From an uncultured Anaerolineaceae bacterium (GTDB taxonomy: Bacteria; Chloroflexota; Anaerolineae; Anaerolineales; Anaerolineaceae), in the NCBI GenBank assembly GCA_937907495.1, contig CALESS010000560.1, forward strand, positions 1 to 8,530: 8,530 nucleotides of DNA, in the 5' to 3' direction. Shown in pieces: positions 3,221 to 7,233 of this stretch (positions are counted from its first letter, which is position 1; the number at the start of each line of letters is the position of its first letter). The notes beneath the pieces are model-generated. The model was not told the origin of the DNA and did not search any database. It saw nothing but the letters and a program-made list of their open reading frames with translations. Both the position numbers and the translations under genes were made by a program.

Positions 3221-3568
3221 ATGCCCTCGAATCGTGAAACTGTTCTCCCCCTTTCTGAAGCCGTCTTCTTTATCTTGCTCTCCCTGGCGCAGGGTCCCCT
3301 CCACGGCTATGCCATTCTCAAAGATGTGGCAAGCCTGAGTGAAGCACGAATCCTGCTTAGCACGGGCACTCTGTATGGCGCGCTCAAGCGCATGCTGGAA
3401 CAGGGGTGGATTGAGCGGGTGGATGACCCGCAGCCCAACCTCACTGAGCGCGAGCGCAAAGCCTATTCCCTCACCCAGTTGGGACGCCGCATTTTGAATG
3501 CTGAACTAAACCGCCTGCGGCAACTGGTAGATTTAGCCGGGACACAACTATTGGAGGAATGCAGATGA
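3221..3568 (+). CDS. PadR-family transcriptional regulator
   Basis: This 115-aa protein is a short PadR winged-helix repressor (subfamily 1 size, with one C-terminal dimerisation helix). The winged helix runs from about residue 13: FFILLSLAQGPLHGYAILKDV, then the recognition region ILLSTGTLYGALKRMLEQGWIERV, then the wing (RERKAYSLTQLGRRIL). HGYxI and GTLYxxLxRLxxxGWI are the family hallmarks. The start is the ATG at 3221, with TAGGAGGT at 3203-3210. Its own promoter carries a perfect palindrome, so it probably represses the operon until an unknown ligand releases it. The stop overlaps the start of the following membrane-protein gene (ATGA, 3565-3568). PadR genes are often paired in this way with the membrane protein they control. 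The identification is secure; the ligand is unknown. Confidence 0.95.
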   Translation: MPSNRETVLPLSEAVFFILLSLAQGPLHGYAILKDVASLSEARILLSTGTLYGALKRMLEQGWIERVDDPQPNLTERERKAYSLTQLGRRILNAELNRLRQLVDLAGTQLLEECR

Positions 3569-4830
3569 ATTTCCTGGTTCATCTGGTCACCCAGGGTTAT
3601 GCGGCCATTCTACACTTATATCCATTGGCTTTTCGCCAGGAAATGGGGGCGGAGATGCAGGATGTTTTTGGCCAGGTGATAGCAGAAGCATCTCAGGGCG
3701 GTTGGGGTGCCATCATATTGGTTTTTTGGCGGGAGCTGCGCGATCTGCCCGGCAACCTGGCAGCAGCACAGCGCAGCCACCCGCAAGGTGAGTTCAAAAT
3801 GAAACGAAATGGTTTCTTCCTGGTGACCTTGTTCGTCTCTATCATAATTGTGCAGATCGCTTTCGGCTCCTATTTGGGTGGAATCTGGACCATTACAATT
3901 GGCCTGGTTGTTGCCTTCCCTCTCTCACTTTTGCTCTGGCAGGCCAGAAAATTGCGGACGAAGACATTGATCTATATCGGCCTGGGCGTCCTACTCGGCC
4001 TGTTGTGGCCTACATCCTCTCTGGTAGAATCGGAGAAATTTTATAATTACCATCTGCCCCAGCCTTATCTTTCCATCGTGAACATCCTTGTCTTTTCGTG
4101 TTTTCTCCTGGCGGTCGTCATGGCGGCGGCTATGATAGATCAAGCTGCCCAGATACTGCATCGTTGGCTGAATCTGCCGCCCACAAAGCCGGGCGAACTT
4201 TCCGCCCCGACCAAACGGGATGACTGGACGCTGCCAGCCCTGTTTGGCCTGAGCAGCGCCCTGTTGTTGATGTTCTTCCACAACCTCTCCGACCTGCTGA
4301 TGTGGGATAACACCTATGATGCCCTCGGGGGTCTATGGTTAATCCTACCGGTAATAACCTGTCTGCTATGCGGGATGGTGCTGGCCCTCAATCTGCCCGG
4401 CAAGTCCAAATGGATAAGTTTGCTCTTCATCCTCTTCATTCCGCTAATGATATATACATTGTCAATCCCCGCCATGAATATTGACGTTGGCACACTGACA
4501 AGAGAGCGTGGTGAACGCCTCACTTATGCCATCCAAACTTATTACCAGCGCGAAGGGCACTATCCGCAAACCCTGGCCCGCCTGACACCCCGAGACCTGC
4601 GTATGATCCAGCCGCCGTTCGTTCTCAACGGGCAAAATTGGTGTTACGATGCCGGGCAACATTATTACCGTTTGGGCTATGTGGATCGGGAGCATTGGAG
4701 CGCACCCGAGTATCGGGGAAATATGCTCGCTTCTGCCGGTGACCTTTCCGGCTTGCCGCCTGTTTGCCAGGCCGCGATTGCGAAACTAAGCATTGTTTAT
4801 AAAACTGCGGATATCCAAGGGAGCAAATAA
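3565..4830 (+). CDS. PadR-linked polytopic membrane protein with pseudopilin-like C-terminal domain
   Basis: I chose the ATG at 3565 (421 aa) because it forms an ATGA overlap with padR and has GGAGG seven bases upstream (3553-3557); an ATG at 3559 is the alternative. Residues 1-75 form a soluble helical segment (LYPLAFRQEMGAEMQDVFGQVIAEA...FWRELRDLPGNL). It resembles the N-terminal prefix found on many PadR-associated membrane proteins and permeases. About seven hydrophobic helices follow (roughly residues 84-104, 108-128, 135-151, 170-190, 223-240, 255-275, 284-301). The last ~110 residues are soluble and probably outside the cell: RGERLTYAIQTYYQREGHYPQTLARLTP..., then NWCYDAGQHYYRLGY. This is like the globular half of type II pseudopilins. 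No transporter motif is visible. A stress or envelope-sensing role under PadR control is possible, but unproven. Confidence 0.8.
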   Translation: MNFLVHLVTQGYAAILHLYPLAFRQEMGAEMQDVFGQVIAEASQGGWGAIILVFWRELRDLPGNLAAAQRSHPQGEFKMKRNGFFLVTLFVSIIIVQIAFGSYLGGIWTITIGLVVAFPLSLLLWQARKLRTKTLIYIGLGVLLGLLWPTSSLVESEKFYNYHLPQPYLSIVNILVFSCFLLAVVMAAAMIDQAAQILHRWLNLPPTKPGELSAPTKRDDWTLPALFGLSSALLLMFFHNLSDLLMWDNTYDALGGLWLILPVITCLLCGMVLALNLPGKSKWISLLFILFIPLMIYTLSIPAMNIDVGTLTRERGERLTYAIQTYYQREGHYPQTLARLTPRDLRMIQPPFVLNGQNWCYDAGQHYYRLGYVDREHWSAPEYRGNMLASAGDLSGLPPVCQAAIAKLSIVYKTADIQGSK

Positions 4831-5037: not shown

Positions 5038-5066
5038 TTGACTCCACCCTCACTTCCTGTTATATT
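5038..5066 (+). promoter_or_regulatory. Promoter of the ribozyme / small-ORF unit
   Basis: TTGACT (5038-5043) and TATATT (5061-5066) are separated by exactly 17 bases; each hexamer differs from consensus at one position. Transcription would start near 5073, leaving about 25 nt before the predicted ribozyme cleavage site. This is the best promoter match I found in the window. Confidence 0.75.
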
Positions 5067-5096
5067 TAGATTGTGAGTGAAAGCCGGTGGAGATAC

Positions 5097-5264
5097 AGCG
5101 GCTGAGCCCCGGAATGGTTCCGGGGTGACGAGGAAGAGGTTCCTCCCTGCGAAGGGAGCGCTAACCCTGCCGGGGCAGGGGAAAATCGAGAGATCAGCGG
5201 ATGCCTCCGGAGCTTGCAAGCTCCATTCTCCCCCAGACATAATTGTTGCCCGATGATACGGGCA
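5097..5264 (+). ncRNA. glmS-type self-cleaving ribozyme (GlcN6P-responsive), variant with extra core stems
   Basis: The order of elements matches the glmS ribozyme. The predicted cleavage site is A5097/G5098, followed by GCGGCUGAG (family: GCGCC-GA/G-). P1 is an 8-bp hairpin (5107-5114 with 5118-5125), joined directly to UGACGAGG (5126-5133). GAGGUU (5136-5141) supplies the 5' strand of P2 (GAGG 5136-5139 with CCUC 5204-5207). AUCGAGA (5185-5191) and GCGGAUGCC (5197-5205) are the other core blocks. P3 is GGAGCU/AGCUCC (5209-5214, 5219-5224). A candidate P4 is UGCCCG/CGGGCA (5247-5252, 5259-5264). Unlike standard members, 43 bases (5142-5184) with two hairpins sit inside the core. In the known family, glucosamine-6-phosphate acts as a cofactor for self-cleavage, which destabilises the downstream mRNA. 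No glmS follows here. The pairing near the cleavage site is shifted or has a bulge (see findings). The match is from memory. Confidence 0.85.
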
Positions 5265-5316
5265 TTTCACAGGAGCGCATCTTGCGCCCCTTATTGAGCA
5301 TCTACAGGAGGTACAC

Positions 5317-5451
5317 ATGCCCGGACGTTATGATTTTAAAGAAGAAGATATGTTAATCATTGAAAATAAATTGATTGAACCCACCCGCGAAGGGATGGAT
5401 ATGGAAACTGCCCAGATCTTGATGGATGATCGGGTTGCCACCGGCGGATAG
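5317..5451 (+). CDS. 44-aa protein of unknown function downstream of the glmS-type ribozyme
   Basis: The ATG at 5317 has an excellent Shine-Dalgarno, AGGAGGT (5306-5312), four bases upstream, and the frame runs 44 codons to TAG at 5449-5451. The product starts MPGRYDFKEEDMLIIENKL and ends in DDRVATGG. It is acidic, Met-rich, probably partly helical, and has no signal peptide, membrane helix, Cys or recognisable motif. It does not resemble the GlmS N-terminus (MCGIVGY), so it is not a truncated glmS. It is the only ORF between the ribozyme and the terminator at 5493. The RNA element would therefore make its synthesis depend on GlcN6P levels: high sugar phosphate, low protein (inference from the known ribozyme). 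Its reality rests on RBS quality and the promoter-to-terminator context; its function is unknown. Confidence 0.65.
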   Translation: MPGRYDFKEEDMLIIENKLIEPTREGMDMETAQILMDDRVATGG

Positions 5452-5492
5452 ATCCGGCTGCGGGGAGCCTCCCGGGCGTTCACTCACCCTGC

Positions 5493-5526
5493 GGAGCTGA
5501 AGTTTTCTTCAGCTCCGTTTTCGTTT
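5493..5526 (+). terminator. Strong intrinsic terminator of the ribozyme / small-ORF unit
   Basis: A perfect 10-bp stem (GGAGCTGAAG 5493-5502 with CTTCAGCTCC 5507-5516) with a TTTT loop is followed by GTTTTCGTTT. It ends the + strand transcript about 40 bases after the small ORF. The hairpin contains the stop codon of the convergent polX gene (5509-5511), so the two units abut tail to tail. Confidence 0.9.
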
Positions 5527-7233
5527 CAAGAACTCCCGGATCTGCGCGGGCTGCCAGGTGGTGATCACCTGTTGCGGGGTCAGCCAGGCCCGGCGGGCGA
5601 CCGAAACCCCATATTCCGCCAGGTCCATTTGGTCCGGGGCGTGGGAATCGGTGTTGATGGCGATCGGGATGCCCATCTCCCCGGCCCGGCGGGCATAAAC
5701 CTCATCCAAATCCAGGCGGGAAGGATTGGCATTAATTTCCAGCGCCACGCCGGATTCCCGGGCGGCAGGCAGTACCTCGTCCCAGTCCAGGTCAGCGCCT
5801 TCGCGATACCCCAGCAGGCGTCCGCTGGGGTGACCGATGAGATCCACATTCGGGTTGCGGATGGCGTTCAGCAGGCGGGCAGTGACCCGTTCCCGCGGCT
5901 GGCGCAGGCTGATATGCAGCGAAGCCACCACCACATCCAGTTCCGCCAGCACTTCATCCGGGTAATCCAGGCTGCCATCCGCACGGATTTCGACCTCCGC
6001 CCCTTGTAACAGCAGGATCTGCTCCCCCAGTTTTTCTTGCAGGGCGTCAATTTCCAGCCGTTGCTGGCGCAAACGCTCCACGCTCAAACCGCCGGTAATG
6101 GAAAGCCCGCCGGAGTGATCGGTGATGGCAAAAACCTTGCGGCCGCGGGCCAGGGCGCCGCGGGCCATTTCTTCCAGGGTGGAAGCGCCGTCACTCCAGT
6201 TGGTGTGGTTATGCAGGTCAGCCGTCAGGTCGGAGGTCTGGATCAGCTCCGGCAGCCTGCCGGCCTGGGCAGCCTGAATTTCGCCGCGGTCTTCGCGCAG
6301 TTCAGGCGGAATCCAGGGCAGGCCAAGAGCTGTGTACACCTCCTGTTCTGTGGCGCATAAAATTTCACTCCCATCGGCCTGCTGGATGGCCTGTTCAGAG
6401 AGGGAAAAACCCTTCTTCTGCGCCAATTCCCGCAGACGGACGTTGTGGTCCTTGGAGCCGCTGACGAATTGCAGCAGCGTGCCGAAGCGCTCCGGCGGCT
6501 GAGCCCAGAGCTGCAAGTTAATGCCATTGGATAGTTCCACGCTGGATTTATTCTCGCCCTGCCCGGCAATCCGCACCACATCCGGATGATGGACAAAGGC
6601 TTCCATCAGGGGTTTGGGGCTGCGGCAGGCAGCCACCAGGTCCAGGTCACCGATGGTGGATTTCCAGCGCCGCAGACTGCCCGCCACCTCGGCGGCTTCC
6701 ACACCCGGCTGGGCATTCAGCCAGGCCAGCCAGCGCAAGGCCAGCGGGCGGGCATTGCCGAGCAGCATGCGGTTGGTGCGCCGCGAAAGGGCAGCCAACC
6801 CCGCCAGGATGCGTTCCTCGCTTTTGGCTCCCATGCCGGGCAGGCTGCGCAACTGACCGGCGCGGGCAGCCGCCTCCAGCCCTGCCAGGTTGATGATGCC
6901 CAATTCGCGCCAGAAGAGGGCCGCCTTCTTAGGGCCGACATCGGGCACTTCCAGCAGGGTTTCCAGGGTGGGCGGCACTTCCTGCTCCAGCGTCTCCAAA
7001 AACCCCAATGATCCGGTGGTTAGCAGCTCAGTGATCTTTTCGGCAATCGCCTTACCTACGCCGGGAATCTGCTCCAGGCGGTTTTCGGCCAGCACAACGT
7101 GAATATCCTCCGGCAGGTTGCGCAAGGTTTCTGCCACCCGGCGGTAGGCGAGGGTTTTAAATACCAGCTCGCCCTTGATTTCCAACAGGTTGGCAATGTG
7201 TTCAAAGATATCAGCCAGATCATGATTGGTCAT
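5509..7233 (-). CDS. polX: Family X DNA polymerase with PHP domain (PolX)
   Basis: Bacterial PolX enzymes fill short gaps in base-excision and end-joining repair; their PHP domain adds Mn-dependent 3'-5' exonuclease and AP-site cleavage. The full length of 574 aa is normal. The 8-kDa-like region and helix-hairpin-helix motifs are at residues 53-65 (LEQIPGVGKAIAE), 94-106 and 128-140. The polymerase core has GSLRR (185-189) and the metal pair D196/D198. The third Asp of the triad, expected in a V-D-L-R context, is N239 (INLQLW). The PHP domain looks complete: H341, H343, D348, H373, E413, H440, H468, D529, H531. The start at 7233 has GGAGGA (rc of 7238-7243) five bases upstream. The gene ends inside a + strand terminator. 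It probably has its own promoter at 7290-7318. The family is certain; polymerase activity is in doubt. Confidence 0.95.
   Translation of the reverse strand: MTNHDLADIFEHIANLLEIKGELVFKTLAYRRVAETLRNLPEDIHVVLAENRLEQIPGVGKAIAEKITELLTTGSLGFLETLEQEVPPTLETLLEVPDVGPKKAALFWRELGIINLAGLEAAARAGQLRSLPGMGAKSEERILAGLAALSRRTNRMLLGNARPLALRWLAWLNAQPGVEAAEVAGSLRRWKSTIGDLDLVAACRSPKPLMEAFVHHPDVVRIAGQGENKSSVELSNGINLQLWAQPPERFGTLLQFVSGSKDHNVRLRELAQKKGFSLSEQAIQQADGSEILCATEQEVYTALGLPWIPPELREDRGEIQAAQAGRLPELIQTSDLTADLHNHTNWSDGASTLEEMARGALARGRKVFAITDHSGGLSITGGLSVERLRQQRLEIDALQEKLGEQILLLQGAEVEIRADGSLDYPDEVLAELDVVVASLHISLRQPRERVTARLLNAIRNPNVDLIGHPSGRLLGYREGADLDWDEVLPAARESGVALEINANPSRLDLDEVYARRAGEMGIPIAINTDSHAPDQMDLAEYGVSVARRAWLTPQQVITTWQPAQIREFLKRKRS

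What the first reader, a model, noticed from the sequence alone, without database searches (positions are those of the whole stretch)
5038..5526. Orphan glmS-type ribozyme controlling a 44-aa ORF instead of glmS
The elements P1 - UGACGAGG - P2 strand - AUCGAGA - GCGGAUGCC - P3 - P4 occur in the order and near-identity of glmS ribozymes (Bacillus and Thermoanaerobacter forms compared from memory). They sit inside a complete unit: promoter 5038-5066, ribozyme 5097-5264, RBS and small ORF 5306-5451, terminator 5493-5526. Known glmS ribozymes lie almost always in mRNAs for GlmS. Here the unit ends after 44 codons, and the neighbours (PadR membrane operon, polX) have no link to amino-sugar synthesis. 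Either the ribozyme was re-deployed to control a new small protein, or a glmS gene was lost downstream. The intact strong RBS, terminator and absence of a glmS remnant favour the first.
Basis: partly seen in the sequence, partly recalled or inferred. Interest (0 to 1): 0.93.

Follow-up and report, generated by a model that had tools for sequence, protein, structure and literature searches.

The report
Ribozyme switch before a tiny gene
In a bacterium that is probably a relative of Longilinea, an RNA of the glmS self-cleaving ribozyme family sits in front of a tiny conserved gene instead of the usual glmS gene, and it would likely cut that gene's messenger when glucosamine-6-phosphate is plentiful, so a ribozyme thought to serve one gene appears to serve a small set of genes.

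Summary
Confirmed and extended. Window 5095-5237 holds a glmS-class ribozyme. Rfam RF00234 scores it only 21.2 bits (cut-off 37), but gives only 27.5 bits to the glmS leader of Longilinea arvoryzae. A covariance model built from 44 related loci, window left out, gives 107.7 bits, E 1.7e-28. The '43-nt insert' is two hairpins; 104 genome loci share core plus insert, 90 of them with GlmS downstream. The 44-codon ORF belongs to an undescribed small-protein family ending D.ETIEIL..D..ATGG, under purifying selection (pN/pS 0.21). Four further genomes carry a ribozyme-ORF unit, one with a mutated core. So the ribozyme is redeployed; a lost glmS is not needed.

Beyond the finding: of 151 Anaerolineaceae ribozymes examined, 95 precede glmS, 54 glnA (glutamine synthetase), 2 the small-protein gene; all 56 non-glmS ones read AGCG[G/A]CTG, all 95 glmS ones [A/G]GCGC. 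The window has the glnA-type signature and falls inside that clade. Untested: cleavage, ligand, protein function.

The parts
5038..5066 (+). sigma-70-like promoter TTGACT-17-TATATT
   Evidence: 10 of 12 consensus matches; L. arvoryzae's homologous unit has TTGACA-17-TATGAT upstream of its ribozyme (read by eye in the sequence)
5095..5237 (+). glmS-class ribozyme, glnA-type (AGCGGCTGA) subtype
   Evidence: R1 107.7 bits, E 1.7e-28; RF00234 21.2 bits; 32 of 32 invariant columns
5097..5098 (+). predicted self-cleavage site A(-1)|G1
   Evidence: alignment to the glmS consensus AGCG; not tested
5099..5105 (+). 5' strand of pseudoknot helix P2.2: C5099-G5199, G5100-C5198, bulged G5101, C5102-G5197, U5103-A5196, G5104-C5195, A5105-U5194
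   Evidence: sequence; AGCG[G/A]CTG is shared by 54 of 54 glnA-linked and 2 of 2 small-ORF-linked ribozymes examined; the nucleotide after CTG varies, so the last pair is not conserved
5106..5126 (+). P1 hairpin (5106-5114 with 5118-5126)
5127..5139 (+). catalytic core GACGAGG and 5' strand of P2 (GAGG 5136-5139, pairs with CCTC 5204-5207)
   Evidence: the single-sequence fold pairs this region locally instead and cannot show pseudoknots
5142..5185 (+). two-hairpin insert as in other Chloroflexota glmS-class ribozymes (stems 5143-5147/5154-5158 and 5165-5170/5175-5180)
   Evidence: the single-sequence fold forms the second hairpin and only the inner part of the first
5186..5205 (+). core TCGAGAGATCAGCGGATGCC incl. 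3' strand of P2.2 (5194-5200)
5209..5224 (+). P3 hairpin GGAGC-TTGCAA-GCTCC; the usual P4 domain after it is not recognisable
5306..5311 (+). ribosome-binding site AGGAGG
   Evidence: sequence
5317..5451 (+). 44-codon ORF, member of the -ATGG small-protein family
5491..5528 (+). intrinsic-terminator-like hairpin and T-rich tail, overlapping the 3' end of convergent polX
   Evidence: (stem 5491-5518)

Best explanation
The unit is a predicted single-gene transcript whose 5' leader holds a glmS-class ribozyme of the type that precedes glutamine synthetase genes in Anaerolineaceae, and it would likely cleave itself when glucosamine-6-phosphate (GlcN6P) is high, so that the 44-residue protein is predicted to be made mainly when amino-sugar supply is low. 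Shown: the ribozyme's sequence core and its fit to a lineage-specific covariance model; the same ribozyme subtype before homologous small ORFs in four other genomes (core mutated in one) and before glnA at 54 of 151 family ribozymes examined; purifying selection on the ORF's C-terminal segment. Inferred from the studied glmS ribozymes: GlcN6P as cofactor, cleavage at 5097/5098, and loss of the mRNA after cleavage. Inferred only: that the protein (acidic, predicted largely unstructured with one C-terminal helix, free Gly-Gly end) is a partner or regulator of the glutamine and GlcN6P enzymes whose genes carry this ribozyme class.
For: R1 107.7 bits in the window. Of 104 loci with the same core and insert, 90 have GlmS and 9 GlnA within 2.6 kb downstream, 5 neither. 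In 147 Anaerolineaceae genomes 113 have R1 matches at E 0.01; of 151 ribozymes examined (150 listed, one added; weaker matches were not listed) 95 precede glmS, 54 glnA, 2 the small ORF. The target splits by subtype without exception: 95 of 95 glmS-linked are [A/G]GCGC, 54 of 54 glnA-linked and 2 of 2 small-ORF-linked are AGCG[G/A]CTG; the window is AGCGGCTGA. Small-ORF + ribozyme units: L. arvoryzae (L140; 100 bits), G463 (L149, 106), G444 (L150, 92.9), G464 (L148, 68.5). In a tree of 154 RNAs the glnA- and small-ORF-linked ones form one clade (54 + 5, local support 0.999). Neighbours differ between the window (polX), L140 (branched-chain amino-acid-type ABC transporter genes) and L150 (uvrC and a response regulator). 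ORF family: 30 proteins at E up to 10 with the three-sequence profile, 146 at E up to 1 with the 22-sequence profile (120 listed); pS 0.71 against pN 0.15 over the last 17 codons, 66 pairs of 12 genes. A shifted P2.2 bulge is compatible with some cleavage in mutants of a known glmS core (PMC7125110, section 14 read).
Against: No cleavage or ligand data. RF00234 stays below its cut-off. The window's RNA lacks a recognisable P4 domain and has at best a 6-pair P3.1 candidate, a length chance could give, where four glnA-linked relatives have 8 pairs. One of the four related units (L148) has changes in core positions (AGAG, GACAAGG, GCGGAGG), so the ribozyme may be decaying or the assembly faulty there. 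Eight of 12 small-ORF loci in the family have no ribozyme in the fetched stretch (some stretches are cut by contig ends), so the protein does not need it. In the tree the window's RNA sits with glnA-linked RNAs of G209, G408, G411 and G413 (support 0.907), not with the other four small-ORF RNAs, so common descent of the unit is unproven. L140, L148 and L149 look alike in their downstream flank (read by eye), so they may be one event. pS is near saturation.
Confidence: 0.74

Rival explanations
1. The ribozyme is a remnant: a glnA (or glmS) leader whose gene was lost or displaced, and the small ORF lies after it by accident.
For: The window's RNA is glnA-type and clusters with glnA leaders; it lacks a normal P4.
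Against: All 32 invariant core positions are kept; homologous ORFs follow the same ribozyme type in four other genomes; L. arvoryzae and G463 have separate glnA ribozymes too; the ORF has its own RBS and terminator-like hairpin.
Confidence: 0.1
2. The ribozyme subtype with the bulge at nucleotide 4 answers to a different ligand (for example glutamine or another nitrogen signal), not GlcN6P.
For: In the 151 examined the subtype is found with glnA and the small ORF only, never with glmS (0 of 95).
Against: The core segments are unchanged, and the second P2.1 strand, which forms part of the cofactor pocket in a known glmS ribozyme (passages of PMC7125110), lies in them by my placement; the change is in pairing helix P2.2.
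Confidence: 0.12
3. The small ORF is not translated; the RNA itself (ribozyme product plus terminator) is a small regulatory RNA.
For: Short predicted transcript of about 450 nt with strong hairpins; no function known for the peptide.
Against: Codon-level conservation (pN/pS 0.21), 146 related proteins at E up to 1, clear RBS.
Confidence: 0.04

Closest known systems
glmS ribozyme (Rfam RF00234)
   Same: Order and identity of core segments, pseudoknot pairing P2.2, P1, P2, P3; place in a 5' leader
   Different: Two-hairpin insert in the P2 loop; P2.2 bulge at nucleotide 4; no recognisable P4; target is a 44-codon ORF; RF00234 score below cut-off
Chloroflexota glmS leaders (90 of 104 loci)
   Same: Same core and insert (by construction of the scan)
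   Different: In the family sample they read [A/G]GCGC, not AGCGG (95 of 95), and precede glmS
glnA-linked glmS-class ribozymes of Anaerolineaceae (54 loci)
   Same: Same AGCG[G/A]CTG signature and clade
   Different: An 8-pair P3.1 in the 4 examples checked; they precede glutamine synthetase
glnA RNA motif / glutamine riboswitch (RF01739 recalled)
   Same: It too concerns glutamine metabolism (listed with ligand glutamine in a passage of PMC3766115)
   Different: Different RNA; no match to it at E 1 in the window or in six related loci
Pup and ubiquitin-like modifiers (recalled)
   Same: Small acidic protein, largely without predicted structure, with Gly-Gly at its C-terminus
   Different: No Pfam or NCBIfam match; no beta-grasp fold predicted; ends in GG itself, not GGE/GGQ; no ligase looked for

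Membership tests
glmS ribozyme | Rfam RF00234 gathering score (37 bits) | tested here: not met
   21.2 bits; in six control loci none reaches 37: L. arvoryzae glmS leader 27.5, glnA leader 31.2, small-ORF leader 26.1, L198 23.7, L149 23.5, L150 no match, so the cut-off misses the members of this lineage that I tested
glmS ribozyme | Homology to leaders of glmS genes | tested here: met
   R1 107.7 bits, E 1.7e-28; 35 of the 44 training rows have GlmS and 9 GlnA downstream; training loci were found with a window-derived pattern
glmS ribozyme | Conserved catalytic core nucleotides | tested here: met
   32 of 32 invariant columns of the lineage alignment, many of them fixed by the scan pattern
glmS ribozyme | P2.2 pseudoknot next to the cleavage site | tested here: met
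   Six pairs with one bulge (sequence); bulge at nt 4, where the studied ribozyme has it at nt 6
glmS ribozyme | P3.1/P4 peripheral domain | tested here: inconclusive
   P4 not recognisable; 6-pair P3.1 candidate; self-cleavage has been measured on a 66-nt core construct (PMC7125110 passages)
glmS ribozyme | Located in the glmS mRNA | tested here: not met
   ORF of 44 codons, then terminator-like hairpin
glmS ribozyme | GlcN6P-dependent self-cleavage | not testable with these tools
   needs bench work
-ATGG small-protein family (defined here) | C-terminal motif D.ET..IL..D..ATGG and stop | tested here: met
   window DMETAQILMDDRVATGG; D28 E30 L35 D38 T42 G43 G44 invariant over 42 sequences
ubiquitin-like / Pup-type modifier | Diglycine C-terminus | tested here: met
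   sequence
ubiquitin-like / Pup-type modifier | Beta-grasp fold (ubiquitin-like) | tested here: not met
   AlphaFold2 gives one helix 29-41, mean pLDDT 64, low confidence
ubiquitin-like / Pup-type modifier | Dedicated activating enzyme or ligase | not tested
   no genome held for the window; not sought in relatives

The most novel reading that the evidence does not exclude
Anaerolineaceae run a GlcN6P ribozyme regulon: one ribozyme ancestor was copied from glmS to glnA, acquired a shifted P2.2 bulge, and was copied again to a diglycine-tailed small protein that itself tunes glutamine synthetase or GlmS, coupling glutamine supply to cell-wall amino-sugar demand.
Probability: 0.3. Interest if true: 0.92.

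Novelty: new variant of a known kind. Interest (0 to 1): 0.8.

Why it matters
glmS ribozymes are the textbook case of one ribozyme for one gene (recalled: a 2011 survey put all but two known examples in glmS mRNAs; paper not held). Here the class is found with at least two other targets, in a lineage whose tested members fall below the public model's cut-off, and the targets split cleanly by a structural change beside the cleavage site. That makes testable how a self-cleaving riboswitch is retuned and recruited to new genes. It also gives a handle on an undescribed small-protein family with a member in a named strain, L. arvoryzae KOME-1.

Tried and rejected
Lost glmS downstream: not needed, because the ORF unit recurs. 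ORF as chance: rejected. Rfam suhB match at 5460-5530 (21.7 bits, cut-off 41, E 0.6): terminator hairpin, taken as chance. Single-sequence protein search found only the ORF itself. The G333 hit of the small protein (L141, E 0.0014) has no -ATGG end and no ribozyme: dropped. L154 (G403) ends NTGG; L153 ends ATGG but has a divergent motif; both are distant. Pfam (2 small proteins) and NCBIfam (7): no family. Structure: one low-confidence helix, so no fold search was run. Viral scan: 0 matches. Paper searches: glmS ribozyme with glutamine synthetase (7 listed) or glnA (7 listed), with Chloroflexi or the survey's title words (15 listed), glmS riboswitch with Anaerolineae (none), glmS ribozymes with Deinococcus and variants (none), and UBact/Pup/diglycine/Chloroflexi (24 found, 20 listed). 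In these listings I saw no title or opening abstract that describes glmS-class ribozymes before glnA or this small gene; I read only passages of PMC3766115 and PMC11602151, and passages plus section 14 of PMC7125110. This covers an open-licence library, not all literature. Of the flanking genes I tested, none was shared between the window and the other units; the flanks of L148 and L149 were not run against Pfam. The ribozyme and protein lists were capped by the tools.

Full report
What is in the window. A complete small unit lies at 5038-5528: promoter-like site, ribozyme, RBS, 44-codon ORF, terminator-like hairpin. Upstream are a PadR regulator and a 423-residue protein without a Pfam family; convergent downstream is polX. 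The highest-scoring polX match among 147 family genomes is that of Longilinea arvoryzae (69% identity), then G209 and G411 (68%); 74 of the 147 have any match. So the window most likely comes from a member of the Anaerolineaceae. No whole genome is held for it. The 44-residue protein itself is recorded on 33 contigs of the protein database.

The RNA. RF00234 finds it at 21.2 bits, E 0.12, under the cut-off of 37. I scanned the genome collection for the core with an 18-48 nt insert: 104 loci, nearly all with Chloroflexota titles (exceptions: L048 Caldisericota, L074 Coleofasciculus, L032 'bacterium'). Within 2.6 kb downstream: 90 GlmS, 9 GlnA, 5 neither (four with only 121-453 bases left in the locus, and L029). 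A covariance model from 44 of these (9 GlnA-linked, 35 GlmS-linked; window left out) scores the window at 107.7 bits, E 1.7e-28. Because the scan pattern was modelled on the window, the score is not fully independent, but the position of the hits before glmS is. As a control on RF00234, the L. arvoryzae glmS leader scores 27.5, its glnA leader 31.2 and its small-ORF leader 26.1, L198 23.7 and L149 23.5, all below 37, and L150 gives no RF00234 match.

The subtype. In 147 Anaerolineaceae genomes 113 have R1 matches at E 0.01. I took the 150 listed places plus one more from L. arvoryzae; further, weaker matches were not listed by the tool. Of these 151, 95 precede glmS, 54 glnA, 2 the small ORF (its script left one place, L218, unassigned, and the -ATGG ORF there was read). 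By genome (104): 50 only glmS, 43 glmS and glnA, 9 only glnA, 1 all three (L. arvoryzae), 1 glnA and small ORF (G463). All 95 glmS-linked RNAs read [A/G]GCGC after the cleavage site; all 54 glnA-linked and both small-ORF-linked ones read AGCG[G/A]CTG. In the second form nucleotide 4 is unpaired, while CUG pairs with CAG of the other strand, so the P2.2 bulge is moved towards the cleavage site. In a mutational study of a glmS core, bulges shifted towards the middle of P2.2 were suggested to improve cleavage over mismatched helices (PMC7125110, section 14). The window has the second form, and in a tree of 154 RNAs this form makes one clade (54 glnA + 5 small-ORF, local support 0.999; short sequences, so inner branches are weak).

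The gene. A homologous ORF lies directly after L. arvoryzae's second ribozyme (LARV_02557). A three-sequence profile found 30 proteins at E up to 10, a 22-sequence one 146 at E up to 1. The proteins have a variable N-terminal part and a nearly fixed C-terminal end; the three for which I computed it are acidic (pI 4.1-4.2). In 147 family genomes 12 have a hit at E 0.1; a ribozyme is upstream at 4 of the 12 loci. In 396 genomes spread over the class, 2 have a hit with the 22-sequence profile at E 0.01. Over the last 17 codons of 12 genes pS is 0.71 and pN 0.15. In G209, whose protein equals that of Bellilinea caldifistulae, the gene has no ribozyme in reach and follows argG-argH. AlphaFold2 gives one helix, residues 29-41, mean pLDDT 64.

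How it would work. From studied glmS ribozymes (established knowledge): GlcN6P acts as cofactor, the RNA cuts itself, the 3' product is degraded. Applied here, the small protein, glutamine synthetase and GlmS would be made together when GlcN6P is short. GlmS uses glutamine, which glutamine synthetase makes, so putting glnA under the same sensor is coherent. The role of the small protein is unknown; a regulator of one of these enzymes is my inference from shared control only.

Weak points. No activity data; P4 is missing or replaced in the window; the single-sequence fold prefers a local pairing over P2 (z-score -2.58, and it cannot model the pseudoknots); L148 has core changes; the window's RNA does not group with the other four small-ORF RNAs.

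Noticed in passing
L123, L198, L170 and 51 other loci: glmS-class ribozymes precede glnA (glutamine synthetase of about 445 residues) in 54 Anaerolineaceae loci, with a median of about 180 nt from model end to gene start.
   Followed up: yes
L029:3767-6445: A [A/G]GCGC-type ribozyme lies before a gene with glutamate synthase domains (PF01645, PF04898): a possible further nitrogen target, one locus only.
   Followed up: partly
L115, minus strand: A strong ribozyme match (119.5 bits) is followed by a hairpin with a T run and an ORF that looks FAD-oxidase-like by eye, with no GlmS or GlnA match in the locus.
   Followed up: partly
L048 and L074: Same ribozyme before glmS in MAGs titled Caldisericota and Coleofasciculus; transfer or misbinned contigs.
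   Followed up: no
L302, L303, L304: The small-protein gene without ribozyme keeps its place between an ORF of argH size and a 275-279 residue ORF in three genomes; Pfam was run on L302 only, where the former is argH.
   Followed up: partly
window 3221-4830: PadR regulator overlapping a 423-residue protein without a Pfam family, on the same strand as the ribozyme unit and upstream of it.
   Followed up: no
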